Notes under the pieces: generated by a model
What the model saw: only the letters and a program-made list of their open reading frames with translations
Told to the model about the DNA's origin: nothing
The model's database searches: none
Assembly: GCA_030535425.1 (NCBI GenBank)
Contig: JAUNHQ010000021.1
Coordinates: 1-41,661, forward strand
From: Pseudomonadota bacterium
Lineage (GTDB): Bacteria; Pseudomonadota; Gammaproteobacteria; Burkholderiales; Burkholderiaceae_C
DNA: 41,661 nucleotides
Direction of reading: 5' to 3'
Program-made: the position numbers and the translations under genes
Shown here: one piece after another, positions 2,685 through 32,031 of the stretch
Numbering within the stretch: the first letter of the stretch is position 1
How the letters are laid out: each line of letters starts with the position of its first letter

Positions 2685-2704
2685 ATCTAAGCGCCCCCAC
2701 GCAA

Positions 2705-3496: not shown

Positions 3497-3522
3497 GGTG
3501 TGTGCGTGCAATCTCTGGTCAC

Positions 3523-3565
3523 GACTTGCGCAAGGCAGACACCATGTGCTGCTTGACTTGCGCAA
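3523..3565. promoter_or_regulatory. Tandem TTGCGCAA palindromes 32 bp apart
   Basis: The 11-mer GACTTGCGCAA occurs at 3523-3533 and again at 3555-3565; each holds the palindrome TTGCGCAA. The 32-bp spacing is about three helical turns, which would suit a regulator binding twice on one face. The first copy is 27 bp upstream of the NlpC/P60 start codon. The binding protein is unknown. This is one of two notable signals in the roughly 300-bp divergent gap 3497-3793. Confidence 0.4.
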
Positions 3566-3613
3566 AATCTGCGGATTCTGGTTGTGTCTGCCAGAGGCAG
3601 ATGACGATGGATG

Positions 3614-3632
3614 TTGTACTTTGGACGTACAA
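3614..3632. promoter_or_regulatory. Inverted repeat TTGTAC-N7-GTACAA
   Basis: Perfect 6-bp arms TTGTAC (3614-3619) and GTACAA (3627-3632) flank 7 bp in the divergent gap between the NlpC/P60 and dehydrogenase genes. The form suits a dimeric regulator; it does not match a site I can name. Confidence 0.35.
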
Positions 3633-3793
3633 AGCCCCGAAAGGGACAAGTCATAGTGTAGGACAAATACTTGCGTGAAGATGTGCAATAAATCTAAGGT
3701 TTTACCCTTTGCTTTTAGGTGCGCAGATGCCGCCAAGCTCTACGCTCAAGGGTGAACAGCCCCCAACGCATCAAGAAAGAAAAAGTGACAGCC

Positions 3794-4969: not shown

Positions 4970-4983
4970 TTAACTCATTTTTT

Positions 4984-5065
4984 TATAGCTTCTTGCGCGC
5001 TTTGCATGGGGTTTTGATGCGAAAAAGACCCTGAAAACAAGGCGGGCAGGGCGCGAGAAGCTATA
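4984..5065. repeat. Long inverted repeat, variant of the dispersed element
   Basis: TATAGCTTCTTGCGC (4984-4998) is complementary, with one mismatch, to 5051-5065 (GCGCGAGAAGCTATA), giving a 15-bp stem with a 52-nt loop in the gap between the dehydrogenase and LD-carboxypeptidase genes (4970-5107). The ATAGCT and GCGC cores resemble the dispersed element seen elsewhere in the window. It may act as a transcription end point for the upstream gene. Confidence 0.55.
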
Positions 5066-5107
5066 TCATTCCTCTATTGGCTCGCCCTTTTCCTGCCTTG
5101 TATCTTC

Positions 5108-6037: not shown

Positions 6038-6128
6038 GAAAAGATAAAAAATGTTACGCTTGCTGCACTAAGCTGCTTTAAGCCCTCATATCCCACCTTC
6101 GCTTCTCAGGCCATCTCTTTTCGCGCGC

Positions 6129-7070
6129 ATGAGCACGCACCAAACCATGGTTTTCATTGACCTCACGGGCAGCACAACTGTCTACGAGGCATTGGGTAAC
6201 GCGCAGGTGGCTCCTGTCATTACCCAAGTGACCCAATGGATTGGCCGTGTCATCGTGGCACACGATGGCCAAGTCATCAAGTTCCTTGGTGATGGCGTGC
6301 TGGCATTGTTTCAGCACAGCCAGAACGCGGTGGAGGCAGCGGTCTTCTTGCAGCAAAACCATACCAGCCGCCTGCGTCACTGGCCCGAGCAACTGCGCAT
6401 GGGGCTCAAAATCGGCATGGCCAGCGGCCCAATGATCAGTGTGGGCGAGGATATCTTCGGCGACGCCGTGAATCTGGCTTCGCGCCTATCGGACATGGCT
6501 GGGCCCAACACCATCTGGGCAGCCGAGAGTGTCATCATCGATTTGAAACACCAACTGCCAGAAGCGCACGCCAGCAGCATGTCCGTGCGTTATCGCTCGC
6601 TTGGCTTGGTACGCATTCGTGGCCTTGCCCAGCCACATTCGGTTTTTCAAATCGAATGGAATGAAGAGGTCAGCACCGACTTGATGACCGTGCGCGGCGA
6701 ACTTTCAGCCATCGAGAGCGGGGCCCAAGACACTCCCCATGGCGCCATCGTGCTCGCTTGGCTGGGTACAAGCCAAGCGTTTTCAGCCATCGATTTGCCA
6801 ATCATCATCGGGCGCATGCCTGATTGCGGCTTCATCGTGGACGACCAGCGCGTCTCACGTCATCATGCGCGCCTTGAATGGACAGACGGCACGTTCAGCA
6901 TCACAGACACCAGCAGCTTTGGTACCTGGGTGCGTTTTACAGACAACCAAGCTGCGGACATCCCACTGCGTCGCACACATTGCATCCTGCATTCCACAGG
7001 TGAGATTGCGCTGGGCGCGCCATTTAGTGACTTCAGTGCCCCGACGGTCGCTTTTCAAATTCACGCTTAA
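6129..7070 (+). CDS. Class III adenylate cyclase with C-terminal FHA domain
   Basis: The N-terminal domain (about 5-175) is a class III nucleotide cyclase: metal-binding Asp11 in VFIDLTGST and Asp55 in KFLGDGV, adenine-selecting Lys51 and Asp112, and transition-state Asn115 and Arg119 in GDAVNLASRL. All canonical residues are present, which predicts an active enzyme preferring ATP. Residues 205-300 form an FHA domain with IIIGR (225-229), SRHH (243-246) and SFGT, the phosphothreonine-binding signature. The protein has no membrane segments, so it is probably cytosolic and recruited to a phosphorylated partner (inference). No Ser/Thr kinase or phosphatase gene lies in the window. It is alone on the plus strand. 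Confidence 0.9.
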   Translation: MSTHQTMVFIDLTGSTTVYEALGNAQVAPVITQVTQWIGRVIVAHDGQVIKFLGDGVLALFQHSQNAVEAAVFLQQNHTSRLRHWPEQLRMGLKIGMASGPMISVGEDIFGDAVNLASRLSDMAGPNTIWAAESVIIDLKHQLPEAHASSMSVRYRSLGLVRIRGLAQPHSVFQIEWNEEVSTDLMTVRGELSAIESGAQDTPHGAIVLAWLGTSQAFSAIDLPIIIGRMPDCGFIVDDQRVSRHHARLEWTDGTFSITDTSSFGTWVRFTDNQAADIPLRRTHCILHSTGEIALGAPFSDFSAPTVAFQIHA

Positions 7071-7114
7071 AACACCTTACTCGGTGGGAAAGGCTTATCC
7101 TTTGATTGTTTATT

Positions 7115-7142
7115 TATTAACATAATGCACATCGTATGAAGT
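7115..7142. other. dif-like half-site (XerD arm only)
   Basis: 7115-7125 reads TATTAACATAA, matching 9 of 11 positions of the XerD arm of dif written in this orientation (ATTTAACATAA). The six bases that would be the centre are TGCACA, but the other arm (7132-7142) matches the XerC arm at only about 4 of 11 positions. It is therefore not a normal dif. It ends at the start of the Xer-activator-like remnant, which makes it worth noting. The surrounding 60 bp are unusually AT-rich. Confidence 0.3.
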
Positions 7143-7325
7143 AAAGCCAAGACCGGCAGCACAAAGCACCTGCGCCAAAGCCGCGCGGAACAAGGCCGAA
7201 AGCTGTGGGCCATGTACCGCTCGCTGGGCATGTCACGCACCGATTGCGCGAAGTTCCTTCAGGTCTCCGAACGGTCTTTACATAACTGGGAGTCGGGCCA
7301 GCATCGCATGCCCCTGGCCGTGTTC
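7137..7325 (+). pseudogene. Truncated HTH gene resembling VC1465/XafT Xer recombination activation factor
   Basis: The reading frame from 7140 gives SKAKTGSTKHLRQSRAEQG, then LWAMYRSLGMSRTDC, then AKFLQVSERSLHNWESGQHR and MPLAVF, where similarity stops. This resembles the N-terminal helix-turn-helix part of the VC1465 family (Xer recombination activation factors of integrated elements), from memory of that family. It is broken at both ends. At the 5' end an in-frame stop (7137-7139) sits where a start is expected; dropping one A from ATGAAGTAAAGCC would restore ATG AGT AAA GCC. At the 3' end the frame runs into the tail of the opposite-strand gene at 7324. An ATG at 7212 exists but would omit half of the HTH. 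No product is expected. Confidence 0.6.
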
Positions 7326-7509
7326 AATTTTTTTTGCCTTCCCGACGCTCGCGGGCGCGGCGCTGCTGGCGGGTTTCGCTGGCTTGGGCAGCAGCGTCGG
7401 TCTGGGCTTGGCGCTTGGCGCGCCAGCGGGCAGACAGGCGCCGGCCCAGCCAGAAGCTGATGAGGCCGGTGGCCAGGCCTATGAACAGGGCAAAGACGCT
7501 GATGTCCAT
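7324..7509 (-). CDS. Small single-pass membrane protein
   Basis: This 61-residue protein starts MDISVFALFIGLATGLISFW, one hydrophobic transmembrane segment, and continues with a basic, Arg- and Gln-rich tail (RRLSARWRAKRQ, RQQRRARERREGKKN) that should sit in the cytoplasm. I chose the ATG at 7509; an upstream in-frame ATG at 7587 would place the start within the 3' end of parC. It lies 31 bp after parC on the same strand, so it is probably co-transcribed. No function is known to me; the composition is consistent with a small envelope accessory protein. Confidence 0.65.
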   Translation of the reverse strand: MDISVFALFIGLATGLISFWLGRRLSARWRAKRQAQTDAAAQASETRQQRRARERREGKKN

Positions 7510-7540
7510 TGTGGGCGGCTCCTGGAGGGGTGCGGGAGGC

Positions 7541-9937
7541 TTACAGCACGCGCTGCACGCTGTGGGGCTTGAAGCCGAAGCTGGCATCGCGCCCCTTGCG
7601 GGCGCGGGCGGCGCGGGCGTTGTTCAGGCTGCGGATTTCCAGCACTTCTTCGCGCGCCTTGCCACCGCGGCCGATGCCGGTGATGCGCACGCTGCGGGTG
7701 TAGGCGGCGGCGCCAGCCAGGCTGTCTTTGGGCTCCAGGTCCATCAGGGTCAGGCCCCGGCCGCCTTTTTCCATGAGCTTGAGCTCGCCCATTTCAAAGG
7801 TCAGGATGCGCCCGCCGGTGGATACGCAGGCCACATGGGTGGCGGCGACTGCATCAGGCGTTTCTTGCGCTTTGTCTGCCTGCGCCACGGGTGTTTTGGC
7901 GGCCGATCCGGCATCGACCAGCGAGGGGCGGCACACCTGCTCGCCCTGCCCGATGGTGATGAAAGCCTTGCCGCCTTTTTGGCGCGAGAGCATGTGACCC
8001 ACGCAGGCCAAAAAGCCGTAGCCGCCCGATTGCGACAGCAGCAGCGTGGCGCTTTCGGCGCCGGCAAAGTAGTGCAGCGGCTGGGTGCCGGCTTCCAGCT
8101 CGATCAAGGTGGTGATGGGCTGGCCGTCGCCGCGCGCGCCGGGCAGGCTGGCCACGGGGGTGCTGTACACGCGGCCGTTGCTGCCAAAGGTGATGAGCTG
8201 ATCGACCGTGCGGCATTCAAACGCGCCGTACAGGCCGTCGCCGGCTTTGAAGGCAAAGGCGGCGGCGTCGTGCCCGTGGCCCTGGCGGGCGCGCACCCAG
8301 CCTTTTTGGCTGATGACGACGGTGACGGGCTCGTCCAGCACCTTGACTTCGGCCACGGCTTTTTTTTCGGCCTGGATCAGCGTGCGGCGGGCGTCGGCAA
8401 ACTGCTTGGCGTCGGCCTCGATTTCTTTGACCATCAGGCGGCGCAGGCTGGCGGGGTTGGCCAGAATGTCTTGCAGCGCGGTTTGCTGCTGGCGCAGCTC
8501 AGCCAGTTCCTGCTCGATCTTGATGGCCTCCAGCCGGGCCAGCTGGCGCAGGCGGATGTCCAGAATGTCGTCGGCCTGCCGTTCGGTCAGGGCAAAGCGC
8601 GCGATGAGGGCGGCCTTGGGCTCGTCGCTTTCGCGGATGATGGCAATGACCTCGTCGATGTTGAGCAGCACCAGCTGCCGCCCTTCGAGGATGTGGATGC
8701 GGTCTTGCACCTTTTGCAGCCGGTGCTGGCTGCGGCGGGTGATGGTGTGCTGGCGAAACTCGATCCACTCCACCAGCATCTGGCGCAGGCTTTTTTGCAC
8801 CGGCTTGCCGTCCAGCCCCACGCTGGTGAGGTTGATGGGCGCGCTGGTTTCCAAGCTGGTGTGGGCCAGCAGGGTCTGGATGAGATCGCCCTGCCCCACG
8901 CTGCGGCTTTTGGGCGAGAGGACGATGCGCACGGGCGCGTCTTTGCTGGATTCGTCGCGCACTTCGTCCAGCACGGCCAGCACGCTGGCCTTGAGCTGGT
9001 TTTGCTCTTGCGTGAGGGCTTTTTTGCCGGCCTTGACCTTGGGGTTGGTGAGGTCTTCGATTTCTTCCAGCACTTTTTGCGTGCTCACGCCCGGGGGCAG
9101 CTCGGTGACCACCAGCTGCCACTGGCCGCGCGCCAGGTCTTCCACCTTCCAGCGTGCGCGCACTTTCAGGCTGCCGCGGCCGCTGCGGTAGGCGTCTTGA
9201 ATGTCTTGCGCCGTGCTGATGATCTGGCCGCCGCCGGGGTAGTCGGGCCCGGGCAGCAGGGTCAGCAGTTCCTCATCAGCCAGCTTGGGGTTTTTGATGA
9301 GGGCCACGCAGGCATCGGCCACTTCGCGCAGGTTGTGGCTGGGGATTTCGCAGGCCAGGCCCACGGCAATGCCGCTGGCGCCATTGAGCAGGGCAAAGGG
9401 CAGGCGCGCGGGCAGCTGGCGGGGCTCTTGCTCGCGCCCGTCGTAGTTGGGCACGAAGTCCACCGTGCCTTCGTCAATCTCATCGAGCAGCAGGCGGCAG
9501 ATTTTGGACAGGCGCGCCTCGGTGTAGCGCATGGCGGCGGCGCCGTCGCCGTCGCGGCTGCCAAAGTTGCCCTGCCCGTCGATCAGCGGGTAGCGCTGGC
9601 TGAAGTCTTGCGCCATGCGTACCAGCGCGTCGTAGGCGGCGCTGTCGCCGTGGGGGTGGAACTTGCCCAGCACGTCGCCCACCACGCGGGCGCTTTTGAC
9701 CGGGGTGGCGGGGGTGTTGCCGCCCGCGCCGCCATAGCCTAGGCCCATGCGGTCCATCACGTAGAGGATGCGGCGCTGCACGGGCTTTTGCCCGTCGGCC
9801 ACATCGGGCAGCGCGCGGCCCTTGACGACGGACAGCGCATATTCCAGATACGCGCGCTGGGCGTAGGCCGCCAGGGGCAGGCCGTCCTGCCCGTCATCGC
9901 CTGGGCCAGCCAGGTTCAGCTCTGCAAACTCACTCAT
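7541..9937 (-). CDS. parC: DNA topoisomerase IV subunit A
   Basis: ParC is the DNA-cutting subunit of topoisomerase IV, which unlinks daughter chromosomes together with ParE. The 798-residue protein has the winged-helix core [12 protein letters not shown], the quinolone-region motif [12 protein letters not shown] (Ser99 and Asp103 at the positions of E. coli Ser80 and Glu84, so no classic resistance change is seen), the catalytic Tyr138 in [10 protein letters not shown] and the usual long coiled-coil tower. The C-terminal beta-pinwheel is shorter than in E. coli but typical of betaproteobacteria. Its partner parE lies 8.8 kb away on the same strand, separated by a transglycosylase and a catabolic cassette. 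Confidence 0.97.
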
Positions 9938-9980
9938 TCAGCAAACCACTTCTTTCAGCAAACAAGCTCGATGGGAGAAA

Positions 9981-10022
9981 AAGAAAAAGCCGCGCCGCCC
10001 TGTGCCCGATGGCCGGCGCGGC
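9981..10022 (-). terminator. Rho-independent terminator after the transglycosylase gene
   Basis: On the minus strand a perfect 9-bp stem GCCGCGCCG/CGGCGCGGC (10022-10014 with 9997-9989) with a 16-nt loop is followed at once by TTTTTCTTTTTCTC. It lies just past the stop codon of the lytic transglycosylase (10037) and before parC, so parC should need its own promoter in the remaining 45 bp or depend on read-through. Confidence 0.8.
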
Positions 10023-10036
10023 ACCCGTGCGGGCCG

Positions 10037-11050
10037 CTACACGCCGCCGGGCACGAGGGTGGGCACGGCACTGGGCTCGGTCGTGTGGGCATCTGGCGCC
10101 CCCTCCGGCACACCGGGCTCGGCATGCAGCATCGGCGCAAGCGGTGCCTGCGGGGCGCTGACCAGATTCACCCGTATGCGCCCGCTGACCATGCGCCCCG
10201 GGCGCGCCGGGCGATCCACCGCTGGCATGGGCGCGCGGTTGACGGCCCGTGCCAAGGGCGCGGCCGCCGCCCTTTCAGCCGCCTGGGCGGCGGGCTGAAA
10301 CAGGCCGTACAGGCCCATCACGGTTTTGACGTAGTGCTGCGTTTCCTTGTAGCCAGGCACCTGGTTGCCGGCGCGGCGCACGGCGCCCTGCCCGGCGTTG
10401 TAGGCGGCCACGGCCAGCTCGGTATTGCCTTCAAACAAGTGCATCAGATACGCCAGATGGCGCGCGCCTGCAAAGATGTTGGTGCGCGGGTCGGTCAGTT
10501 TTTGCTGCGCCGTGCGCGCGGCGGTGGCAGAGCCGGGGTCAGCCGCATCGGCCACCACGCCGTACTGGCTGGCGGTGCTGGGCAGCAGCTGCATCAGGCC
10601 CACGGCACCCTTGGGCGACACGGCCTGCGGGTCAAAGCCCGATTCGGCGGCAATGACCGCCTTGATGAGCGCGTAATCCACCTTGTGGGCCTTGGCAGCG
10701 GCGCGGATGTGGTGGCGCACGGCCTTGTAGCCGATGACGTAGTCAATGGCCTTGAAACGACGTGGCGGCTCAAACCCGCTGGGCCGCAGGCCCGTTGCGC
10801 CGCTGCTGGCAGGCACCAGCCCCAAAGCGCTGGCGCCCAGGTCCAGCCTGGCCAGATCCGCACCCTTGTAAAACAGCTGGTAGCGCACATCCACCTGCGT
10901 GGCGGCAAAGTGGGTAATGCCCGCCTCATCCATGTAGCCCCACAGGTCGGCATGGGCGCTGGCAACGGGCAGCAGCAAGGCCGCGCACAGCCTAAGCGCT
11001 GTGGCGGCACGCAGGCAAGGCAGGCCGGGGCGGGTGTGTGCGGGTGTCAT
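10037..11050 (-). CDS. Lytic murein transglycosylase (SLT domain) with DUF4124-like N-terminus
   Basis: The SLT domain cleaves glycan strands of peptidoglycan. The protein has a signal peptide (about residues 1-34, ending ASAHA), a DUF4124-like strand region DLWGYMDEAGITHFA, and then the lysozyme-like domain with the catalytic Glu in AVIAAESGFDP followed by SPKGAVGLMQLLPSTA and AVAAYNAGQGAV, all canonical. The last 90 residues are Ala/Pro-rich and probably disordered. I chose the ATG at 11050 (337 residues); 11071 is also possible. The longest frame starts at 11131, inside a terminator stem, so that start is unlikely. It lies between parC and the Bug genes. Confidence 0.88.
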   Translation of the reverse strand: MTPAHTRPGLPCLRAATALRLCAALLLPVASAHADLWGYMDEAGITHFAATQVDVRYQLFYKGADLARLDLGASALGLVPASSGATGLRPSGFEPPRRFKAIDYVIGYKAVRHHIRAAAKAHKVDYALIKAVIAAESGFDPQAVSPKGAVGLMQLLPSTASQYGVVADAADPGSATAARTAQQKLTDPRTNIFAGARHLAYLMHLFEGNTELAVAAYNAGQGAVRRAGNQVPGYKETQHYVKTVMGLYGLFQPAAQAAERAAAAPLARAVNRAPMPAVDRPARPGRMVSGRIRVNLVSAPQAPLAPMLHAEPGVPEGAPDAHTTEPSAVPTLVPGGV

Positions 11051-11129
11051 GACAAGGGGCAGCAGATGCATCAGTCCACCAGCGGCGTGTCGGCGCAAAG
11101 CCGGGTGTCGGTATGCAGAAACGGGACGC

Positions 11130-11161
11130 AAAAAGGTGGGAATAGATACAGTATTCCCACC
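11130..11161 (-). terminator. Rho-independent terminator after the tandem Bug genes
   Basis: GGTGGGAATA (11135-11144) and TATTCCCACC (11152-11161) form a perfect 10-bp stem with a 7-nt loop. On the minus strand it is followed by TTTTT (11134-11130), 70 bp after the stop of the Bug gene at 11231. On the plus strand it is followed by ATTTT, so weak bidirectional action is possible. The perfect symmetry could also make it an operator, but the T-tract favours termination. Confidence 0.75.
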
Positions 11162-11230
11162 ATTTTAGATGCCTGCGGCAACCGCTGCCCCTGGCACCCG
11201 CCGCAGGGCGCCGCGCATGGCTTGAAAGGT

Positions 11231-23763: not shown

Positions 23764-25017
23764 TTAACCGCCCGGCCCTTCGGCCACGCCTGCGCAGCCT
23801 TCGGCCCCGTCGGCGCGCGGGCTCAGCCACACGGGCAGCATGTGCCAGGCCAGCAGGGCAAAGCCGGCTGCCCACAGCAGGCCCGACAGGGGCAGCAGCC
23901 ACTGCGGCAGCAGCGCATAAGACAGCGCGCGCAGCATGGCAGCCAGGGCCACGCAGGCGGCGGCCAGCAGTACCCAGGGGCGGCCTTCTTTGCGCAGCCC
24001 GCTGTGGGTGTAGCCCGCAATCACCAGCACCAGCAAAATGGCCAGCCCAAAGGCGCCGGCGGTGAGCAGGTGCAGGCCCGCGCTGGCGGGCACGGCCAAG
24101 CCCAGGCCGGCCAGGCCCATCAGGCCGTAGCCTGCGGCCATGAAGACGTACACCGCATACAGCATGAGCGGCCAGCGCGTGAGCAGCGCGCGGCCCACGT
24201 GCCAGTCGTTCAGCAGGTTGAGCAGGGCCGCAGCGGCGGCCAGTGCCAGCCACCCGCTGGTGCTGGCGGGCCATTGCAGCACCTGGGCCACGGTGTGCAG
24301 GGCAATGCACAGCACCGCCAGGTTGCGCCGGGGCGGGCGGGCCAGGTAGTGCAGCGGCTGGCCTTCGTCGTCGCGCACGTTCAGCGCCTCCAAGCTGGCG
24401 TTGACGATGCTCATGGAAATGCGGCTCAAGGCCACCACGATGAGGGCCATGTACGCGCCCAGCACGCCGTGCAGCCAGGGCATGGCGTGCTGGCCGCGCC
24501 ATGCCTGCACGTAAAAGCCCAGTGCGGCCAGCGCCCAGGCAAAGGCCAGGTGCCGCCGCTCGGGGGCGTGCCACAGGCGCGGCCACAGCAGGCGCAGCAG
24601 ATCCGCCAGCAAGACCATGTGCAAGGCCCCAACCAGCAGCAGCCCAGGCGCCCACGCGCCGCTGGCGGCAAAGGCCAGGCGCGCGGCCAGCCAGCACGCG
24701 GCCAGCCGCCGCACGTGGCGGGCGGCAAAGACGGGGGTGCGGGTGAATTCGGGCACGGCCGTCAGCACAAAGCCTGCGGCGGCGGCCAGGCCCATGCCCA
24801 GCAGCAGCTCGTGCGCATGCCAGGCCAGCGCGCCGCCTGCGCCGCCGCCCAGTGCGGGCAGGGGCCAGCCCAGCGTCAAAAACAGCACCCAAGGCAGCAT
24901 CAGCCCCAGGGCCGACAAAGCCGTGAGGGCAAAAAACGGGCGAAAGGCGCACAGCCATAGCGGGTGCGCCAAGGTCCAGATGGGTGGAAGGGGTGTGCTC
25001 AAGCGGGGGGCTGCCAT
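23764..25017 (-). CDS. nnrS: NnrS family haem- and copper-containing membrane protein
   Basis: NnrS proteins are polytopic inner-membrane proteins that contain haem and copper and are linked to nitric oxide stress, where they help keep the iron pool usable. The 417-residue protein is almost entirely hydrophobic, with about 12 membrane segments, and has the family blocks HPLWLCAFRPFF near the N-terminus, WHAHELLLGMG, GFVLTAVPEFT and later YTHSGLRKEGRP; several conserved His residues lie near membrane ends and are likely cofactor ligands. It overlaps the FmdE-like gene by 19 bp. No denitrification gene is in the window, so here it seems linked to the import operon. Confidence 0.9.
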   Translation of the reverse strand: MAAPRLSTPLPPIWTLAHPLWLCAFRPFFALTALSALGLMLPWVLFLTLGWPLPALGGGAGGALAWHAHELLLGMGLAAAAGFVLTAVPEFTRTPVFAARHVRRLAACWLAARLAFAASGAWAPGLLLVGALHMVLLADLLRLLWPRLWHAPERRHLAFAWALAALGFYVQAWRGQHAMPWLHGVLGAYMALIVVALSRISMSIVNASLEALNVRDDEGQPLHYLARPPRRNLAVLCIALHTVAQVLQWPASTSGWLALAAAAALLNLLNDWHVGRALLTRWPLMLYAVYVFMAAGYGLMGLAGLGLAVPASAGLHLLTAGAFGLAILLVLVIAGYTHSGLRKEGRPWVLLAAACVALAAMLRALSYALLPQWLLPLSGLLWAAGFALLAWHMLPVWLSPRADGAEGCAGVAEGPGG

Positions 25018-25784
25018 TCGCTAACTTGCACCAGACGTGGGTCGTCCACATGATCAATCAGCATGGCCTTCACGCGCGCCTGCCAGAGCTGGGCAAAGCG
25101 CGCCAGCTCCTGCGCGCTGGCCTGGCCCGAAACGGCGCGCGGCATCAGCTCGCGCATTTCCTGCGGCCAAGGGGTAATGCTGGCGTCCAGCTTCACGCGC
25201 ACGGCGCGGCCCGTGTCGCGGCGGCGCAAGGCCAGGTCGGCTTCAAGCGGGTGGTCGTAGCTCAACAGGTTCTTGCGGCTGAAGCGCCCCGCCGCGCCCA
25301 TGCCGGGAAAGCCGGTTTCCGCCGCCGCGCCGGTCAGCAGCGTGGCAACGGAGGCGATGACGCCGGTCACGCCCTCCTCGCGCCCGTTGCTCATCAGCAC
25401 TTCGATATTGCCGCGCTCGGGCATCTCGCTTGCGTAGAGCGCGCGCATGCCCTTGACGGTCATCAGATACGCGCCGGCCACCGTGGGGCAGGAGTGGCCG
25501 GCCAGGCGCACGGCGTCCACGTAGTGATAGTCCATTACGCCGCCTTCGGCAGCGCCCAGAAACTCGGCCAGCCTGTCGCGCACCCGCATGACCGGGGCCT
25601 GGTTGAAAAAGTCGGGAAAGCCTTTCATGGATTCATCCTCGCAGTTGTCTGTGCCGCCGCAGGCTTGCAGCGGCGCGCTCAAAGCCGCGGCCACGGAAAC
25701 GCCCGCGCCGGACAGCAGCGCATGTTTGAGCCATTGGCGACGGGCTGCGGCAGCCTGAGTGTTTGGGGTGTTCAAGGCGGTCAT
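24999..25784 (-). CDS. Tat-exported FmdE-like lipoprotein
   Basis: The N-terminus has a twin-arginine motif (ARRQWLKHALL, Arg15-Arg16) and a lipobox LQAC with Cys42, so it should be folded, exported by Tat and anchored by lipid. Residues about 87-115 (HYVDAVRLAGHSCPTVAGAY) match the GHxCP signature of the FmdE domain, named after a subunit associated with formylmethanofuran dehydrogenase; His97 and Cys99 are candidate metal ligands. The rest (IEVLMSNGREEGVTGVIASV, GRFSRKNLLSYDH) fits no methanogen enzyme. At 261 residues it is a stand-alone periplasmic protein. Tat export suggests that it carries a cofactor inserted in the cytoplasm (inference). It overlaps nnrS and follows the ABC genes. Confidence 0.75.
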   Translation of the reverse strand: MTALNTPNTQAAAARRQWLKHALLSGAGVSVAAALSAPLQACGGTDNCEDESMKGFPDFFNQAPVMRVRDRLAEFLGAAEGGVMDYHYVDAVRLAGHSCPTVAGAYLMTVKGMRALYASEMPERGNIEVLMSNGREEGVTGVIASVATLLTGAAAETGFPGMGAAGRFSRKNLLSYDHPLEADLALRRRDTGRAVRVKLDASITPWPQEMRELMPRAVSGQASAQELARFAQLWQARVKAMLIDHVDDPRLVQVSEWQPPA

Positions 25785-25869
25785 GTGTTTGCTCCTTCAA
25801 GGCTGTAGAAAAACCGGGGTCAAACATCATGGGAAGTCGGTGGTGGTGGTGGTCAAAAGCAGCCCAAAC

Positions 25870-26703
25870 TCAGCAGCCGTGGCGCGTCGCGGTCATCTCC
25901 GGGGCAACTGCCTGGCCTGCGGCCAGGGCATGCGCATCTGACACACCAGGCACCTCTGGCGCATCGCCGCTTGCCAGCGCCGGCAGACCAAAGGCCGCGC
26001 GCACGGGCGCTTGCGCCAGCAAGGCAGCAGTCTGGCGCAGTACCCAGGTGTCGCTGCGCTGATCGGGCGGCTGGGCCACATCCAGCCGCCAGACGATGCG
26101 CCCGGGCTGCGCGGCCATGACCAGCACGGTGTCGGCCAGCGTCACGGCTTCGGCCACGTCGTGGGTAATCATCAGCACGGCCAGGCTGCGCTGCACGCGC
26201 TGGGTTTGCAGCAGGCGGTGCATGTGGGCTTTCAGGCCAATGTCCAGCGCGGCAAAGGGTTCGTCCAGCAGCAGCGCGTCGGGCCATTGCACCAGGGCGC
26301 GGGCCAGGGCGGCGCGGCTTTGCATGCCGCCTGAAAGCTGCTGCGGGTACTGCCGCAGCGCCAGCGCGTCCAGCCCCAGCGCGGCGGCCTGGGCGCGGGC
26401 CTGCTGCCGGCGCTGGGCCAGCGGCACGCGGCGCGCTTTCAGGCCCAGGGCAATGTTGTCCAGCGTGTTCAGCCAGGGCAGCAGCAGGGCTTGCTGAAAC
26501 ATGACCGCCGTGCGCGCAAAGCCGTTGTGCAGGCGGCCCGACTGCACGGCCAGCAAGCCGGCGCACAGGCGCAGCAGCGTGGTTTTGCCGCAGCCTGAGG
26601 GGCCCACCAGCGCCACGCATTGGCCGGGGCGCACGCTCAGGTCGATGGGCGCCAGCACCTGGCGGGCGCCAAAGCGGTGTTCCAAAGCGGTGGCTTGCAG
26701 CAT
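25870..26703 (-). CDS. ABC transporter ATPase, NitT/TauT type
   Basis: This is the energising subunit of an importer. The 277-residue protein has Walker A GPSGCGKT (34-41), Q-loop Gln70 in VMFQQ, signature LSGGMQSR (123-130), Walker B ALLLDEPFAALD with Asp147 and Glu148, and the switch His181 in MITHDVAEA; all are intact. Sequence type and partner permease fit the nitrate/sulfonate/taurine group (SsuB/TauB-like). The start at 26703 lies 26 bp after the permease gene. The C-terminal 60 residues extend past the usual end and have no recognised domain. The substrate cannot be read from the ATPase. Confidence 0.93.
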   Translation of the reverse strand: MLQATALEHRFGARQVLAPIDLSVRPGQCVALVGPSGCGKTTLLRLCAGLLAVQSGRLHNGFARTAVMFQQALLLPWLNTLDNIALGLKARRVPLAQRRQQARAQAAALGLDALALRQYPQQLSGGMQSRAALARALVQWPDALLLDEPFAALDIGLKAHMHRLLQTQRVQRSLAVLMITHDVAEAVTLADTVLVMAAQPGRIVWRLDVAQPPDQRSDTWVLRQTAALLAQAPVRAAFGLPALASGDAPEVPGVSDAHALAAGQAVAPEMTATRHGC

Positions 26704-26729
26704 GGGGGCTCTTTTATTCAGTCCTGGCG

Positions 26730-27530
26730 TCAATCCTGGCGGCGCCAGCGTTCCAGCTCGCGCTTGATGGGCTCCAGCACGGCGTATTCCATCAGCAGCA
26801 GCAGGCCCACCACCAGACCAATCCACACCAGCGAAGTGGCCATGTCCAGCTGCGAGCGGCTGGCGGCCAGGGCCGCGCCCACGCCGTCGCTGCTGGCCAG
26901 CAGCTCGGCCATGACCACCACGCGCCAGGCGCTGCCCAGCGCCACCGTCCAGGCCGGAAACAGATACGACAGGATGTGCGGCAGGTTCACGTCGGTCAGC
27001 CGCATCCACCACGGCAGGCCCAGGCTGCGCGCCAGCTCGCGCCAGCGCCCATCCAGCGTGCGCGCGCCCTGCATGCCCGCCACCAGCACCACCGGAAAAC
27101 AGGCCACGAACACGGTAAACAGCGGCGTGCCATCGCCCGTGCCAAACCACAGCATGGCCATGACCAGCCAGGCAATGGGCGGCGTGCCCATGAGCACCGT
27201 GACCCAGGGCCGCGCCATCATGGACGCCGTGAGCGAGCTGCCCAGCAGCACCCCCGCCACGCTGCCCAGCAACAGCGCCAGCCCCAGCCCGGCAAACGCC
27301 CGCCGCGCGGTAATGCCCAGCTGGCGCAGCCAGTCACCGCCCTGCCCTGCGCCTTGCAGCAGCGCCTGCGCGGCCTGCGCCGTCTCGTGCGGGGTGGGCA
27401 GCACCAGCGGGCCAAAGTGGCGCGCCAGCGCGTCCCACGCCGCCATCAGCAGCAGCAGGCTGGCCACGGCGCCCCAGCCGCTCCAGAAATACGCGGGCAG
27501 CCGGGCCAGCCACAAGGCAAGTAGTCGCAT
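26730..27530 (-). CDS. ABC transporter permease, NitT/TauT type
   Basis: The 266-residue protein has about six membrane segments and a cytoplasmic coupling loop (ELARSLGLPWWMRLTDVNLP, the EAA-like motif) followed by HILSYLFPAWTVALGSAWRV, as in SsuC/TauC permeases. The N-terminal half holds PTPHETAQAAQALL, a family marker before the transmembrane core. It is followed closely by the ATPase. Upstream, the gap to the binding-protein gene is 88 bp and is filled by a dispersed repeat, which may partly uncouple their expression. Confidence 0.92.
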   Translation of the reverse strand: MRLLALWLARLPAYFWSGWGAVASLLLLMAAWDALARHFGPLVLPTPHETAQAAQALLQGAGQGGDWLRQLGITARRAFAGLGLALLLGSVAGVLLGSSLTASMMARPWVTVLMGTPPIAWLVMAMLWFGTGDGTPLFTVFVACFPVVLVAGMQGARTLDGRWRELARSLGLPWWMRLTDVNLPHILSYLFPAWTVALGSAWRVVVMAELLASSDGVGAALAASRSQLDMATSLVWIGLVVGLLLLMEYAVLEPIKRELERWRRQD

Positions 27531-27540
27531 GACAGAGGTT

Positions 27541-27606
27541 TACTATTATTTTGATAGCTGTTGCCACGCTCTGGGTGCGCGCAAATGCCGTTTTTCATAT
27601 CAAAAA
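27541..27606 (+). repeat. Dispersed AT-rich intergenic repeat within an operon
   Basis: TATTATTTTGATAGCTG at the left and GCGCAAATGCCGTTTTTC at the right match the two halves of the element elsewhere. It sits between the binding-protein gene (ends 27619) and the permease start (27530) and fills most of that gap, so it probably affects transcription or mRNA stability within the operon. Confidence 0.75.
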
Positions 27607-27618
27607 CCAGGGGAGTGT

Positions 27619-28704
27619 TCACACCCCGCCATAAAACCCCTCCGCCGGCAGCTTGCCGCCAATCAGGCCGGGCTGGCTGGCGCGCAGTTGCTCAAAGAAA
27701 AACTCCAGCTCGGCCCGCGCCTGCTGTGCCGGCACCACCTGGCCCGGCACGGCGCGGATGGCAGCGGCCACGCCTTCGGGGGTGAGCATGGGCAGGCGCT
27801 TGGCCACGGCCTGGCCGCAGGCATCGGGCTGGGTATTGCACCACTGCTGCGCTTGTGCATAGGCCTGTGCAAAGCGCGCCTGCAAAGCCGCGTTGCCCAG
27901 GTGCTTGCCCATGGCCACCATGCCCGCCTGCGGAATGCGGGGCGCGCGGGCAAAGGCTTGGCCCCATGCCTGCTGCACATCCACGCTGCGGTGCAGGGCC
28001 GGCGCAATCACACTGGCGGGCAGGCTGCGCGATTTGAGCAGGCCGACCGACACCGCCGGCTCGGCCAGCAAGGCGTGGTCGGCGCGGCGGGTCAGCAGCA
28101 GCTGCATGGCCTCCAGCGGCGTGGCCGTGTAGCGCAAGGTGATGGCGTCTGCCCCCTCGCCAATGGGCACCCCCAGCTTGGCCGCCACGGTGCGCAGCAC
28201 GATGTCGGGCATGTCGCCCCGAAAAGGCATGACCAGTTCTTTGCCTTTCAGATCGGCCAGGGTTTTGATGGCCGGATCGCGCGACACCACAAACAGCAAG
28301 CCCCAGATGCTGATGTTGAGCAATTGCAGCGCCACCCCCCGGTTGAACAAATTGGCCGCCACGTTGCTGGGCATGGCCATGAAGTCGGCCTTGCCCTCCA
28401 CCGCCATGGCGCGCAGCTGGTCGGGGTCTTTCCAGGGCAAAAACTCCACCTGCTCGGCCACATCGGCCAGCAGGCCCGCATCCACGATGCGGATGAGCGC
28501 ATTGCTGACTGAGGCGCTGGGGCCGGCCAGCAGCAGCTTGGGGATTTTGGCGATAGCCTGCGCGGGCGCCGAAGCCGCCGCTGGGGCGGCCACTGCGGTA
28601 GGCGTTGAGGAAGGGGCCTGCGCGCGCAGCCAGGGCGAAACCGCAGCGGCGCTGCCCAGCAGGGTGGTTTTCAGCACAGTGCGGCGGGTGGTGGTGTGCT
28701 TCAT
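27619..28704 (-). CDS. ABC transporter substrate-binding protein with Tat signal (NitT/TauT type)
   Basis: The 361-residue protein starts with a twin-arginine signal (TTRRTVLKTTLLGSAAAVSP), an Ala/Pro spacer, and a type II binding fold in the NMT1/SsuA group: IPKLLLAGPSASVSNALIR, FLPWKDPDQLRAMAVEGKAD, LADLKGKELVMPFRGDMPD and MQLLLTRRADHALLAEP. The ligand is unknown; the MPSNVAANLFNRG segment occurs in related receptors. Its ATG directly abuts the stop codon of the TonB receptor gene, with no intervening base, which argues for co-translation. Tat export means the protein folds before export. Confidence 0.88.
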   Translation of the reverse strand: MKHTTTRRTVLKTTLLGSAAAVSPWLRAQAPSSTPTAVAAPAAASAPAQAIAKIPKLLLAGPSASVSNALIRIVDAGLLADVAEQVEFLPWKDPDQLRAMAVEGKADFMAMPSNVAANLFNRGVALQLLNISIWGLLFVVSRDPAIKTLADLKGKELVMPFRGDMPDIVLRTVAAKLGVPIGEGADAITLRYTATPLEAMQLLLTRRADHALLAEPAVSVGLLKSRSLPASVIAPALHRSVDVQQAWGQAFARAPRIPQAGMVAMGKHLGNAALQARFAQAYAQAQQWCNTQPDACGQAVAKRLPMLTPEGVAAAIRAVPGQVVPAQQARAELEFFFEQLRASQPGLIGGKLPAEGFYGGV

Positions 28705-30807
28705 TCAAAAACTCGCGTTCCAGGCAAGGCTCAGGCTGCGGCCCGGCGCCATGATTTCATAACCGGGCAGGCCCACGGCCAGGTGGTCGTGGTAGCGACG
28801 GTTGGTCAGGTTCTTCACGGCCAGGCGCAGGCTGTGGCCCGCGCGGTAGCGCCAGGTGGCGCCCACGTCCACCACGGTGTAGCCCGGGGTGGCGTCTTCG
28901 GTGCCGCGCGAAAACACCGTGGCCACGCGGTCTTGCCGCGCCACGATGCGCGCTTGCGCATCCAGCGTCCAGGCGGGCGTCACGCGGCCTTCCCAGCCCA
29001 GCGTCAGGCTGTCGGCGGGCACTTGGTACAGCGGCTCGTTCAAGTCGTTGTTGGTGCTGCGAATGCGCGTGTAGGCGGCCGACAGCCAGTGCCCACGCCA
29101 GGCCTGCCAGCGCCCGCCTGCCTCAAAACCCTTGAGCGTGACGCTGCCCAAGTTGACCATCTGCCGGCAAATGGCGGCATTGGCCGCGCCGCAGGCGGCC
29201 ACGGCGCTGGCGCCACTGAGCGACTGGCCGGTGATGTAGTGGCTGATGCGGTTGCGGAAAAAGGCCAGCGAATAGTCCACATCCACCGTGCTGCCTTTGA
29301 TGCCCAGCTCGAACTGCGTGGCTTTTTCAGGCGCGATCTGCGGGCTGCCCGCGTAGTAAGCGCCGTCGTTGCGCAGGCCGGACTGGTAGCGCTCGCGCAT
29401 GTCGGCCGCGCGGAAACCGCGCGAGAGGTTGACATAAGGGCGCAGCCAGGGCGCGGCTTCGTACATCACGCCCAGGCTGCCCGAGGTGGCGCCATCGCTG
29501 CGGTCCAGCCCGGTGGTGACGCTGCCGTTGTTCATGGCCTTGGCGCTGCCGCGCACGCGGTCGTGCCGCAAACCGGCCAGCACGCGCCACTGGCCCAGCT
29601 GCATGTCGTCTTGCACAAACACGCCCACGGCGCGCAGCCTGCCGTCTTGGAACGGGTTGTTGGCCGTCCATTGCGTAAAGGCAGGTGGCGCGGCCTGGGC
29701 AGCATCGGGGCTGGCGCCCATTTGCCAAGCGTTCAGCCCGAACGACAGCACATGCTGCGGGTGCGCCAGCCATTCGGCCTTGGCATCCAGGCCGTTGGTG
29801 GAAAAGCGCACGTCGTTGGTCACGATGTCGCGCCCCAGCCCATTGGCAAAGCCGTTGATGGTGCGGTGCATTTGCTGGCGGTACACGCGCACATCCAGCC
29901 CCAGCGGCTGGCTGGCGCTGCGCGCTCGGCTGTAGCCAGCCTCAAACAGCGTGCGCTCTTGCCGGGGCGAATGCGTGGTCACGCTGCCCACAGCGGGCAG
30001 GCGGTGCGGCTGCGTGGCGCCGGGGTACCACACGTCATCGTCGCGCTGCTGCTGCACCGACAGGCGCAGCTGCTGGCTGGCGTCGATGCGGTAGCGGTAC
30101 TGCCCGATCAGCGCGCGCGAGTCATAGCCCGTGCGCGGCACTTGGCCGTCGGGCGAGCGGTAGTCGTTGTCGTGGCGCAGCGCCGCGCCCAGCATCAGCG
30201 CATGATCGCCGCCGCTGGCGTTCATCACCGCCACACCGTTGGTGCCACGGCTGGCGCTGTCAAAGCCCAGCCCGGTGCGCCAGTGCACGCCGGGGTCAAA
30301 ACGCGCCTGCGGCAGCCGCACGTTGATGGCCCCACCCAAGGCGCCCGTGCCGTACAGCACCGAAGCCGGGCCTTTGACCACCTCCACCTGCTCGGCCAGC
30401 CCCAGCGAGGCAAACGACGCCACCGCCCCCACCGGCTGGGCAGCGTTCAGCCGCACGCCATCGACCATCAGCACCACGCTTTCGCGCTGCAAGCCGCGAA
30501 TCACAGGATTGACCCCCTGCGCGCTGTCACCTGATGCGGCCAGGCCTGGCTCGCCCCGCAGCGCCTGGCCCACATTGGGCGCCTGTTTGCGCGCCAAATC
30601 CTCCTGCGTGAGCACGGTGGTGGACACAGGCGTGTCGGCCATGACGGCCTCATACCCTTTGGCGGTGACCGGCACAGGCGGCAGCGTCATGACCGGCTCT
30701 TCCTGCACCATGGCGGGCGCTGCCGCACCTTGCGCCCAAGCCATTTTCATGGGGCATGTCATACACAGCACCCATGCAGCCATCGCTATCGGGGTCAGCC
30801 TGGACAT
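28705..30807 (-). CDS. TonB-dependent outer-membrane receptor
   Basis: TonB-dependent receptors import metal complexes, haem or other large ligands across the outer membrane. The 700-residue protein has a signal peptide (MSRLTPIAMAAW..., ending AWAQG), an N-terminal plug (TPVSTTVLTQEDLAR, NPVIRGLQRESVVLMVDG, EQVEVVKGPASVLYGTGALGGAIN) and a beta-barrel ending in Phe (LSLAWNASF), as required for assembly. The plug style resembles the haem/haemoglobin and siderophore receptor groups, but I see no conserved haem-receptor His motif. The ATG at 30807 is fixed by a perfect AGGAGGT Shine-Dalgarno 8 bp upstream. A Fur-like box lies 88 bp upstream. It leads the six-gene block. Confidence 0.93.
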   Translation of the reverse strand: MSRLTPIAMAAWVLCMTCPMKMAWAQGAAAPAMVQEEPVMTLPPVPVTAKGYEAVMADTPVSTTVLTQEDLARKQAPNVGQALRGEPGLAASGDSAQGVNPVIRGLQRESVVLMVDGVRLNAAQPVGAVASFASLGLAEQVEVVKGPASVLYGTGALGGAINVRLPQARFDPGVHWRTGLGFDSASRGTNGVAVMNASGGDHALMLGAALRHDNDYRSPDGQVPRTGYDSRALIGQYRYRIDASQQLRLSVQQQRDDDVWYPGATQPHRLPAVGSVTTHSPRQERTLFEAGYSRARSASQPLGLDVRVYRQQMHRTINGFANGLGRDIVTNDVRFSTNGLDAKAEWLAHPQHVLSFGLNAWQMGASPDAAQAAPPAFTQWTANNPFQDGRLRAVGVFVQDDMQLGQWRVLAGLRHDRVRGSAKAMNNGSVTTGLDRSDGATSGSLGVMYEAAPWLRPYVNLSRGFRAADMRERYQSGLRNDGAYYAGSPQIAPEKATQFELGIKGSTVDVDYSLAFFRNRISHYITGQSLSGASAVAACGAANAAICRQMVNLGSVTLKGFEAGGRWQAWRGHWLSAAYTRIRSTNNDLNEPLYQVPADSLTLGWEGRVTPAWTLDAQARIVARQDRVATVFSRGTEDATPGYTVVDVGATWRYRAGHSLRLAVKNLTNRRYHDHLAVGLPGYEIMAPGRSLSLAWNASF

Positions 30808-30815
30808 TTGAGAGC

Positions 30816-30822
30816 ACCTCCT
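30816..30822 (-). promoter_or_regulatory. Strong Shine-Dalgarno (AGGAGGT)
   Basis: On the minus strand AGGAGGT lies 8 bp before the ATG at 30807. It decides the start of the TonB receptor gene over the in-frame ATG at 30864. Confidence 0.85.
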
Positions 30823-30894
30823 GTTTGAACAGCCTGAAGCCACCACACCTGCCCTGGCCTGCACGCATGGTGAAGATGAAGCACCTCAGATCGT

Positions 30895-30915
30895 AACAAG
30901 AGTAATTCTCATTTG
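30895..30915 (-). promoter_or_regulatory. Fur-like box upstream of the TonB receptor operon
   Basis: On the minus strand this 21-bp site reads AAATGAGAAT-T-ACTCTTGTTA. The left half matches the AAATGAGAAT half of Fur sites common in betaproteobacteria; the right half matches its reverse complement at 6 of 10 positions. It overlaps a possible -10 (GAGAAT) spaced 15 bp from TTGATC, so Fur with iron would block the promoter. The gap 30808-30966 also holds a small hairpin CCTGC-ATCC-GCAGG at the end of the LacI gene, without a T-tract. Confidence 0.6.
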
Positions 30916-30966
30916 CCTTAAACTGGATCAAGACTGCTCCCCTGCGGATGCAGGCATGGCCTCTCA

Positions 30967-32031
30967 TCACAGGTTTAGGGGTAGGTTCTTTCCACCGGCT
31001 GGCCAGGACACGGCTGGCCGCGTGCTGGCCCTGGCAATGACTTCAAAGCCTACGTCCAGGGTTGCGGCCACCTTTTCACCGTTCATGCGGGCGATCAATG
31101 CCTGCGCGCCCAGGTAGCCGATGCGGCCGCCATCCACTTTCACCGTGGACAGTGCGGGCACTGCATCTGCTGCAAGCGCCTGATCGCCAAATCCCAACAC
31201 GCCCAGCTGCTGCGGCACCTGCAAGCCCAGTGCATGGGCCTGCGCCAGCACGCCTTGCGCCAGCGCGTCAGAGCTGCAAAAGACGGCATCTGCATCGGGC
31301 GCCCTGGTACGCAGGGCATCCAGTGCCTCCCTGCCCCGGCCGGCCTGCGGGCTCTTTTCGGAAAAGACAATTTGCACAGGCTGGGCCGCACCCGCTTCAG
31401 CCGCCGCGCGCGCAAAACCTTGCGCTCTGCGGCTGGCCCGGCTGTCGTCTGAGCGCAAGATGGCTGGACGCTGGTAGCCACAAGCTGCCAAATACCGGAA
31501 AGCCGCCCTGCCAGCATCTTCCTGGGAAAAACCAATGGCCACGTCCAGTGGATAAGGCGAGTAATCCCAAAGCTCCACCACGGGGATGTCGCTGTTGAGC
31601 AGCAGGCGCCGCGCACGCGCCGTGTGCTCGGTGCCTGTGAGCACGACACCATCTGGCCTTCTGCTCAACATGGCAGCCAGCCAGGTTTCCTCGTGCTCAG
31701 GGTCATAGCTCGACACGCCAAGTGTCGTTTCGTAGCGCTGCGCCGCCAGACCGGAAATGAGTGCCGCCAGCATGTCGGAAAACAGCGAATGCGCCAGAGA
31801 AGGCACGATGGCTGCGACCAGCCGGGTCCGCCGGGAGGTCAAGCCGCCCGCCAGCGAATTGGGCACATAGCCTGATTGCTCTACCGCCTGAGCCACGCGC
31901 TCGCGTGTGGCCTGGGCCACCAGCTCAGGGCGATGCAAGGCCCGCGAGGCCGTGATGGGTGACACGCCAGCCAGGCGGGCCAAGTCTTTGAGTGTTGGGG
32001 CTGTGGCGCCGCCGGGGCTTCGGCGTGACAT
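30967..32031 (-). CDS. LacI-family regulator, gluconate-repressor type
   Basis: The 354-residue protein has an N-terminal LacI helix-turn-helix (TLKDLARLAGVSPITASRAL, residues 13-32), a hinge helix (YVPNSLAGGL, 55-64) and a periplasmic-binding-like effector domain. Its sequence pattern, including VVELWDYSPYPLDVAIGF and a C-terminal LDVGFEVIARAS, resembles the E. coli gluconate repressor GntR, which is a LacI member. It diverges from the sugar-acid operon, and palindromic sites lie in the shared intergenic region. I infer that it represses the operon and itself and is released by a sugar acid or a breakdown intermediate. Confidence 0.9.
   Translation of the reverse strand: MSRRSPGGATAPTLKDLARLAGVSPITASRALHRPELVAQATRERVAQAVEQSGYVPNSLAGGLTSRRTRLVAAIVPSLAHSLFSDMLAALISGLAAQRYETTLGVSSYDPEHEETWLAAMLSRRPDGVVLTGTEHTARARRLLLNSDIPVVELWDYSPYPLDVAIGFSQEDAGRAAFRYLAACGYQRPAILRSDDSRASRRAQGFARAAAEAGAAQPVQIVFSEKSPQAGRGREALDALRTRAPDADAVFCSSDALAQGVLAQAHALGLQVPQQLGVLGFGDQALAADAVPALSTVKVDGGRIGYLGAQALIARMNGEKVAATLDVGFEVIARASTRPAVSWPAGGKNLPLNL

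What the first reader, a model, noticed from the sequence alone, without database searches (positions are those of the whole stretch)
23764..30930. Fur-boxed operon joining TonB receptor, NitT-type ABC importer, FmdE-like Tat lipoprotein and NnrS
Six adjacent minus-strand genes run with abutting or overlapping ends: TonB receptor directly abutting binding protein, permease 26 bp before ATPase, FmdE-like overlapping NnrS by 19 bp. A Fur-like box and a perfect Shine-Dalgarno precede the first gene. Outer-membrane and inner-membrane import plus a periplasmic GHxCP protein and a haem-copper membrane protein would form a complete route for some metal complex, haem or cofactor, but NitT/TauT-type transporters are not the usual partner of TonB receptors for iron. 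I know no described pathway with this set. Two of the proteins (the ABC receptor and the FmdE-like one) carry Tat signals, suggesting that they fold or load a cofactor before export.
Basis: partly seen in the sequence, partly recalled or inferred. Interest (0 to 1): 0.75.

Follow-up and report, generated by a model that had tools for sequence, protein, structure and literature searches.

The report
Iron-uptake operon for denitrifying growth
A conserved set of genes found mainly in denitrifying bacteria joins an outer-membrane receptor, an inner-membrane importer and the nitric-oxide-linked protein NnrS, and control sites in many relatives suggest that it is switched on when iron is scarce and oxygen is absent.

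Summary
The six genes are there as described, and the association is not chance. An SBP-anchored scan of GTDB contigs gave 441 relatives (best 80 kept); of 60 with enough flank, 59 have SBP–permease–ATPase–NnrS and 46 also the TonB receptor in front. Versions occur in Alphaproteobacteria and Campylobacterota. FmdE is optional (6 of 60); the full six-gene set was seen elsewhere only in Paracoccus. The window's FmdE leader was found in 0 of 56 relatives. Upstream of the cassette I found a composite site: an FNR/DNR-type box followed, usually after one base, by a Fur-like box (29 of 80 upstreams; 31 of 33 such pairs lie directly before the cassette). The window's own copy is degenerate. The host has nirK and nosZ. 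Best reading: an iron-acquisition operon for anoxic denitrifying growth, with NnrS guarding incoming iron against nitric oxide. Substrate unknown; an anionic iron complex is preferred and haem is the main rival (the receptor is haem-receptor kin, under the cut-off, without NPNL; half of its relatives keep a His in that stretch). Regulation, substrate and NnrS role are inferred; no paper found describes the cassette.

The parts
30918..30931 (-). FNR/DNR-like box TTGATCCAGTTTAA (8 of 10 consensus positions)
   Evidence: alone reached by 6.35% of 2000 resamplings; the equivalent site is strong in many relatives.
30897..30911 (-). Fur-like box TGAGAATTACTCTTG, 20 bp start-to-start after the FNR-like box (15 in most relatives that have the pair)
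30890..30895 (-). -10-like hexamer TACGAT (4/6), starting at +30 from the centre of the FNR-like box
   Evidence: Hand count; in relatives +30 is the preferred offset beyond the boxes, 19 of 35 sites with 4/6 or better.
30816..30822 (-). Shine-Dalgarno AGGAGGT before the ATG of the TonB receptor
28705..30807 (-). TonB-dependent receptor, 700 aa; nearest models TIGR01785/TIGR01786 (haem type) but under their cut-offs
27619..28704 (-). ABC substrate-binding protein (SBP), Tat-type leader, distant NitT/TauT kin; closest solved chain 3hn0
26730..27530 (-). ABC permease (PF00528)
25870..26703 (-). ABC ATPase (PF00005)
24999..25784 (-). FmdE-like protein with Tat-lipoprotein-like leader; accessory member of the cassette
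23764..25017 (-). NnrS-family membrane protein (PF05940)

Best explanation
The operon is an iron-acquisition system for anoxic, denitrifying growth. Inferred course: loss of oxygen (or NO) lets an FNR/DNR-type activator bind at about -41.5, and iron shortage lifts Fur from the adjoining box that overlaps the rest of the promoter, so the operon fires only when both conditions hold. The TonB receptor moves an iron complex, probably anionic, into the periplasm; the SBP and the NitT-like ABC importer carry the complex, or its released ligand, across the inner membrane. NnrS, made in the same operon, limits damage by iron-nitrosyl complexes that form when iron enters a cell producing NO. FmdE is an optional accessory. 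Shown here: the conserved gene set, the composite site in relatives, denitrification genes in the host. Inferred: regulator identities, substrate, role of NnrS.
For: Conservation: SBP-PERM-ATP-NnrS in 59 of 60 well-flanked GTDB loci, 46 of 60 also with the TBDR in front; cassette versions on plasmids of Cereibacter, Shinella, Agrobacterium, Aliarcobacter, Nitratiruptor and Sulfurimonas (8 of 67 records opened) and with FmdE and an Rrf2 gene in Paracoccus. Less biased phylum sample: of 10 further SBP loci (9 genomes), permease and ATPase nearby in 9, NnrS in 7, a TBDR in 6, one of these a weak match. Distances of the five proteins correlate (r 0.62-0.91, 55 loci, 0 of 500 permutations each). 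FNR+Fur pair at 14-16 bp: 29 of 80 upstreams, none in 20 resampled sets; of 33 pairs in the 88 loci, 31 lie in the 500 bp before the cassette and 2 before a TBDR-CobN operon. -10-like hexamer at +30. In the own genome the 6 places within 1 mismatch of the Fur-like consensus include one before feoB and one at a TBDR. Within 10 kb in relatives: FTR1, FeoA/FeoB, PiuC/YbiX, DUF1513, ExbB/ExbD, haem-type TBDR, CobN-like. Host has nosZ (941 bits) and nirK (445 bits). SBP and nosZ co-occur: 6 of 10 against 54 of 388, Fisher p 0.0012, 0.0048 without the own genome. NnrS relieves stress from iron-NO complexes in Vibrio cholerae, as stated in a passage of PMC10256816.
Against: The window's composite site is weak: 17/22 on the family consensus, spacing 20 instead of 15, and the Fur-like part is unremarkable on two of three consensuses. 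51 of 80 upstreams do not reach the pair threshold. 4 of 10 SBP genomes in the phylum sample lack nosZ at E 1e-100. 13 of 60 loci show SBP-PERM-ATP-NnrS without an adjacent TBDR by the script's limits; one of them, L148, has one just outside. Heavy-metal P-type ATPases (8 loci) and cupredoxins (4 loci) also occur nearby, and neighbour counts have no background control. Hexamers inside the Fur box score as well as the -10 (+13: 20 of 35). Kept loci are the 80 best of 441, mostly Burkholderiales/Rhodocyclales by title. FNR, DNR, ANR and kin cannot be told apart. No expression, binding or transport data.
Confidence: 0.52

Rival explanations
1. Haem (or another metalloporphyrin) importer for anoxic growth: the receptor takes haem, and iron is removed by a HmuS-like CobN protein or a HutW-type enzyme.
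For: Nearest receptor models are haem types (TIGR01785 281.3 bits) and nearest solved chain is PhuR; 30 of 61 cassette receptors have a His, and 14 of 61 an FRAP-like motif, in the stretch where haem receptors carry theirs; CobN-like protein in 8 of 88 loci and a haem-type TBDR in 6, two of them with the same FNR+Fur pair; Cereibacter cassette near hutW/hutX; HmuS is a haem de-chelatase (PMC12583661: title, abstract start and a term search seen).
Against: Window receptor is under the TIGR01785 cut-off and has FRAA, no His and SPQI there; NPNL in 0 of 61. CobN is not part of the cassette; NCBIfam calls the one scanned cobaltochelatase CobN (above cut-off), and likeness to HmuS was not tested by sequence. 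The own genome's single CobN lies on another contig.
Confidence: 0.23
2. Copper (or copper-chelate) importer supplying NirK, NosZ and NnrS during denitrification.
For: Host has nirK and nosZ; NnrS is described as haem- and copper-containing (passages); FmdE relatives lie next to nirK in Azospirillum and next to copper/cation P-type ATPases in Haloarcula; heavy-metal P-type ATPases in 8 and cupredoxins in 4 of 88 loci; receptor weakly matches TIGR01778 (125.8 of 472.45 bits).
Against: The second box fits Fur, and in the own genome such sites lie before feoB and at another TBDR; several neighbour families are iron-linked.
Confidence: 0.12
3. A nitric-oxide defence operon in which the importer serves something other than metal (for example an organic sulfonate or cofactor precursor).
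For: NnrS is a member of several NO-responsive regulons (PMC1274295 passages); the Paracoccus version holds an Rrf2-family regulator and DUF1971; NitT/TauT importers usually carry organic anions (established knowledge).
Against: Fur-like box and iron-linked neighbourhood; TonB receptors mostly serve metal chelates, haem or B12 (established knowledge).
Confidence: 0.1

Closest known systems
Fur-controlled TonB/ABC siderophore uptake operons (recalled)
   Same: Outer-membrane TonB receptor plus periplasmic binding protein and ABC importer with a Fur-like box.
   Different: ABC importer of distant NitT/TauT kinship instead of FecBCD/FhuBCD type, NnrS as near-fixed partner, and an FNR/DNR-type box adjoining the Fur-like box.
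Hmu haem system of Bacteroidota with the de-chelatase HmuS (PMC12583661: title, abstract start and term search seen)
   Same: Receptor of haem-type kinship; CobN-like protein within 10 kb in 8 of 88 loci.
   Different: No CobN in the cassette itself; SBP, NitT-like importer and NnrS are extra; NPNL absent in 61 of 61 receptors. A term search of that paper found no mention of NnrS, Pseudomonadota or ABC transporter.
NnrS under NsrR/DNR/NnrR/NorR control (Rodionov 2005, PMC1274295, passages seen)
   Same: NnrS as member of NO and denitrification regulons; DNR-regulated nnrS in P. stutzeri is listed there.
   Different: The terms TonB and ABC transport have no occurrence in its main text.
NitT/TauT importers (SsuABC, TauABC, NrtABC)
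   Same: Permease and ATPase superfamilies; SBP weakly like SsuA.
   Different: The best NCBIfam models are far under their cut-offs (SBP 24.6 of 163.5; permease 105.4 of 295 for SaoP and 67.3 of 209.05 for ntrB; ATPase 164.7 of 357).

Membership tests
NnrS (PF05940) | Score above Pfam gathering cut-off over the whole model | tested here: met
   234.6 bits against 28, model 1-371 of 371.
FmdE (PF02663) | Score above cut-off | tested here: met
   32.1 against 22.9 bits; H97 and C99 of GHSCP in 57 of 57 aligned.
TonB-dependent haem receptor (TIGR01785) | Score above curated cut-off | tested here: not met
   281.3 against 316.85 bits.
TonB-dependent haem receptor (TIGR01785) | FRAP and NPNL motifs with a His between (definition recalled) | tested here: not met
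   Window: FRAA, no His, SPQI. Family of 61: FRAP-like 14, His in the stretch 30, NPNL 0.
TonB-dependent copper receptor (TIGR01778) | Score above curated cut-off | tested here: not met
   125.8 against 472.45 bits.
NitT/TauT ABC importer, known subtypes | SBP, permease or ATPase above a curated substrate-specific cut-off | tested here: not met
   None of the models shown reaches its cut-off (1 for SBP, 6 for permease, best 25 of 189 for ATPase).
Fur regulon | Fur box at the promoter | tested here: inconclusive
   Window 11/14, 0.95% of resamplings; 6.45% and 16.65% with two other consensuses; stronger in relatives. Binding not testable here.
FNR/DNR regulon | TTGATNNNNATCAA at about -41.5 | tested here: inconclusive
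   Window 8/10 (6.35% of resamplings alone); 9/10 or 10/10 in many relatives, -10-like hexamer at +30.
Hmu-type haem iron extraction | CobN-like de-chelatase in the operon | tested here: not met
   None among the six genes; the own genome's single PF02514 match is on contig C136.

The most novel reading that the evidence does not exclude
The system takes up an iron-nitrosyl or comparable iron species of NO-rich surroundings, or imports iron in a form handled directly by NnrS, so that NnrS is the inner-membrane, NO-resistant end of an iron-import route: a dedicated iron supply line for cells that make nitric oxide.
Probability: 0.1. Interest if true: 0.88.

Novelty: new variant of a known kind. 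Interest (0 to 1): 0.65.

Why it matters
Denitrification needs much iron (haem and Fe-S enzymes) while producing NO, which attacks loosely bound iron. How denitrifiers bring in iron under those conditions is, to my knowledge, open. A conserved cassette with combined anoxia and iron control that couples uptake to NnrS would give NnrS a testable role and a marker for iron-limited denitrification.

Tried and rejected
Rejected: chance clustering. FmdE as core member (6 of 60), although FmdE and cassette co-occur in genomes of the order: 6 of 9 against 44 of 291, p 0.0009, 0.0037 without the own genome. Tat export as proof of cofactor loading: a loose pattern flagged Tat in 6 and a lipobox in 4 of 56 upstream reading frames, three with both; by eye these are read-through of long frames, and the combined pattern, which the window passes, fits 0 of 56. 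Led nowhere: solved structures for NnrS (0 hits) and FmdE (two weak histidyl-tRNA synthetase hits, E 0.05); PHROGs; exact FNR boxes in the own genome, 5 places, control 0, mostly beside genes of no evident relation, one near a hemerythrin-like gene recognised by eye; a tblastn of the window NnrS gave no match to the genome's second NnrS (L172) at 1e-3 but 28-63% to cassette NnrS, on which I do not lean because the profile finds that copy at 192 bits. First gene calling was poor at high G+C and was replaced; the replacement still misses genes (the window's ATPase), so presence was counted by tblastn. Literature: in the held open-access library; I saw listings, and passages of PMC9409073, PMC1274295, PMC6769254, PMC10256816, PMC9549626, PMC4417242 and PMC12583661. 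No described cassette found; most subscription papers are not held.

The consensus TGNGAATNATTCNCA, the spacing 14-16 and the threshold were chosen, so the resampling control tests rarity and is no independent prediction; the whole-locus scan is the better control. 9 of 89 upstreams were dropped as short or redundant before the count of 80, which includes the window. 20 of the 80 GTDB loci were left out of the 60 for short flanks.

Full report
Observation. Profiles name a TonB-dependent receptor, an SBP with only weak family matches, an ABC permease, an ABC ATPase, an FmdE-like protein and NnrS. Gaps of 88 and 85 bp before the permease and before fmdE mean that one transcript is likely but not proven. 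A LacI-type regulator lies 159 bp upstream on the same strand (30967-32031) and GreB follows downstream on the same strand, so read-through in or out is possible.

Conservation. A tblastn with the SBP found 67 plasmid records, of which I opened 8. SBP-permease-ATPase-NnrS is whole in Cereibacter, Shinella, Agrobacterium fabrum and Nitratiruptor; the same families in another order or orientation occur in Sulfurimonas and Aliarcobacter; Diaphorobacter and Pseudomonas nitroreducens have partial sets. Paracoccus denitrificans carries TBDR, an Rrf2 gene, FmdE, DUF1971, SBP, permease, ATPase and an NnrS stretch in one run: the only other place where I saw all six families together. The scan of GTDB contigs with the 10-row SBP alignment gave 441 relatives, best 80 kept. 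Of 60 with enough flank, TBDR was beside 47, permease, ATPase and NnrS beside 59 each, FmdE beside 6; SBP, permease, ATPase and NnrS together in 59, with TBDR in 46. The one miss for permease, ATPase and NnrS is L094; L148 counts as lacking a TBDR only because of a distance limit. None of the 6 loci with FmdE has a TBDR next to the SBP. In 398 genomes of the phylum, 10 had the SBP, the own genome included; in 10 loci fetched from the other 9 genomes, permease and ATPase were nearby in 9, NnrS in 7, a TBDR in 6 (one weak, one on the other strand). In the genus, 9 of 29 genomes have the SBP, while the FmdE profile found only one weak partial match among the 28 congeners, in a genome without the SBP; so FmdE looks like a late addition here, with the caution that this profile is insensitive. 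Protein distances correlate across 55 loci, as for a unit inherited together, though shared descent of the hosts also contributes.

Control region. Scanning 500 bp before the cassette showed FNR-type and Fur-like boxes at a fixed distance. With a threshold of 19 of 22 and spacing 14-16, 29 of 80 non-redundant upstreams have the pair and none of 20 resampled sets does. Over the whole 88 loci (2.92 Mb summed over both strands) 33 pairs occur: 31 in the upstream regions (40 kb, one strand) and 2 before a TBDR-CobN operon in Pseudoduganella and Massilia. A -10-like hexamer sits at +30 from the FNR centre in 19 of 35 sites of score 18 or more, the best offset beyond the boxes; +13, inside the Fur box, has 20 of 35, which I put down to box composition. 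An FNR site at about -41.5 is the class II layout (established knowledge). The Fur-like box then covers the region behind it, which suggests repression by occlusion. The window site is a degenerate version: FNR-like 8/10 at 30931-30918, Fur-like at 30911-30897, TACGAT at 30895-30890. As a pair with spacing 12-22 it is not reached in 1000 resamplings, but that range was set after seeing the relatives, and on the family consensus it scores 17/22.

Is the second box Fur's? In the own genome six places match the consensus within one mismatch. One lies before feoB; one at the 5' end of a called TBDR next to an AraC-type gene. Of the other four, Pfam scans of genes beside three gave no iron gene (one is beside a ChlI-like gene, about 2 kb from the genome's CobN gene), and the fourth was only read by eye. 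Sites with up to two mismatches number 35 against 11 for the reversed pattern. Nitratiruptor has a FUR-family gene directly before its cassette. This supports Fur but does not prove it.

Setting. The host has nosZ (C144) and nirK (C121). SBP and nosZ co-occur in the phylum sample, 6 of 10 against 54 of 388. Many named cassette hosts are denitrifiers by general knowledge (Thauera, Stutzerimonas, Azonexus, Denitromonas, Thiobacillus). Agrobacterium's cassette is followed by nap genes, with nnrU within 7 kb.

Substrate. Families recurring within 10 kb in the 88 clustered loci include CobN-like (8), heavy-metal P-type ATPase (8), haem-type TBDR (6), FTR1 (6), DUF1513 (5), ExbB (5), ExbD (4), FeoA (4), FeoB (4), PiuC/YbiX (4), siderophore-type TBDR (4), cupredoxin (4) and DUF2325 (13) (one representative of each scanned, ExbB, ExbD, FeoA, FeoB and the siderophore-type TBDR recognised by eye). 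There is no background control for these counts. The cassette receptor is of haem-receptor kinship but under the cut-off. In the stretch FRAx-MRERF...(R)GDGYYY-NPQ, arginines R471, R473 and R479 are kept in 57 of 61, which fits an anionic ligand; an FRAP-like motif is present in 14 of 61 and a His in 30 of 61, but neither in the window, and NPNL in 0 of 61. The SBP's closest solved chain is 3hn0, deposited as a nitrate transport protein; I did not check its ligand. I prefer an anionic iron complex over haem and over copper, at moderate confidence.

NnrS. Its near-fixed presence is the oddest part. In V. cholerae NnrS is reported to relieve stress from iron-NO complexes (passage in PMC10256816). 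A cell that takes up iron while denitrifying would need such protection, so co-expression makes sense. A direct part of NnrS in transport is not excluded.

FmdE. It is encoded in 50 of 300 genomes of the order, far more than the cassette (9 of 300), and co-occurs with it. In Azospirillum it follows nirK. All 57 aligned sequences keep H97 and C99. In six GTDB loci it follows NnrS; in L141 it lies between ATPase and NnrS as in the window. The window's leader is unusual (0 of 56 relatives): a start at M54 would give the usual length, but the strong Shine-Dalgarno before 25784 (by eye) favours the long form.

Novelty. The searches listed under Tried and rejected found no description. PMC9409073 (passages) links NnrS and iron in P. 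denitrificans through NtrYX and names TonB receptors and an NnrS gene, Pden_4044, but the passages show no such operon; whether Pden_4044 is the cassette copy I did not test. I file it as a new variant of TonB/ABC iron uptake.

Noticed in passing
L111:680 and L125:693 (Pseudoduganella, Massilia): A TBDR-CobN-ExbB/MotA-like operon (the last named by eye; CobN with a signal-like start) next to the cassette carries its own FNR+Fur composite site: a candidate anoxic haem-iron system in Betaproteobacteria.
   Followed up: partly
L197 (G553), 4948-8597: TBDR-SBP-FmdE (29%) with no permease, ATPase or NnrS beside them by tblastn, and an FNR+Fur pair (19/22) upstream.
   Followed up: no
L040 (Azospirillum TSH58 plasmid) 866-11208: FmdE-like gene between nirK and a hemerythrin-domain gene, near NorQ-like, cytochrome oxidase-like and hmp genes: FmdE may be a general denitrification accessory.
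   Followed up: no
L042 (Haloarcula plasmid) 2521-8660: FmdE-like gene directly after a cation P-type ATPase, with a copper P-type ATPase nearby.
   Followed up: no
L098, L105, L106, L109, L112, L117, L120, L121, L126, L131, L154, L161, L163: A DUF2325 protein (one representative scanned) recurs near the cassette in 13 of 88 loci, and a DUF2325 gene lies near the Nitratiruptor cassette: possible further partner.
   Followed up: no
L120: A contig titled Bacteroidia carries a cassette nearly the same in layout and identity as Pseudomonadota loci L121 and L123; probably mis-binned.
   Followed up: no
NZ_CP119140.1, NZ_CP119142.1: 2.17-Mb gonococcal records listed as plasmids; by size they look like chromosomes.
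   Followed up: no
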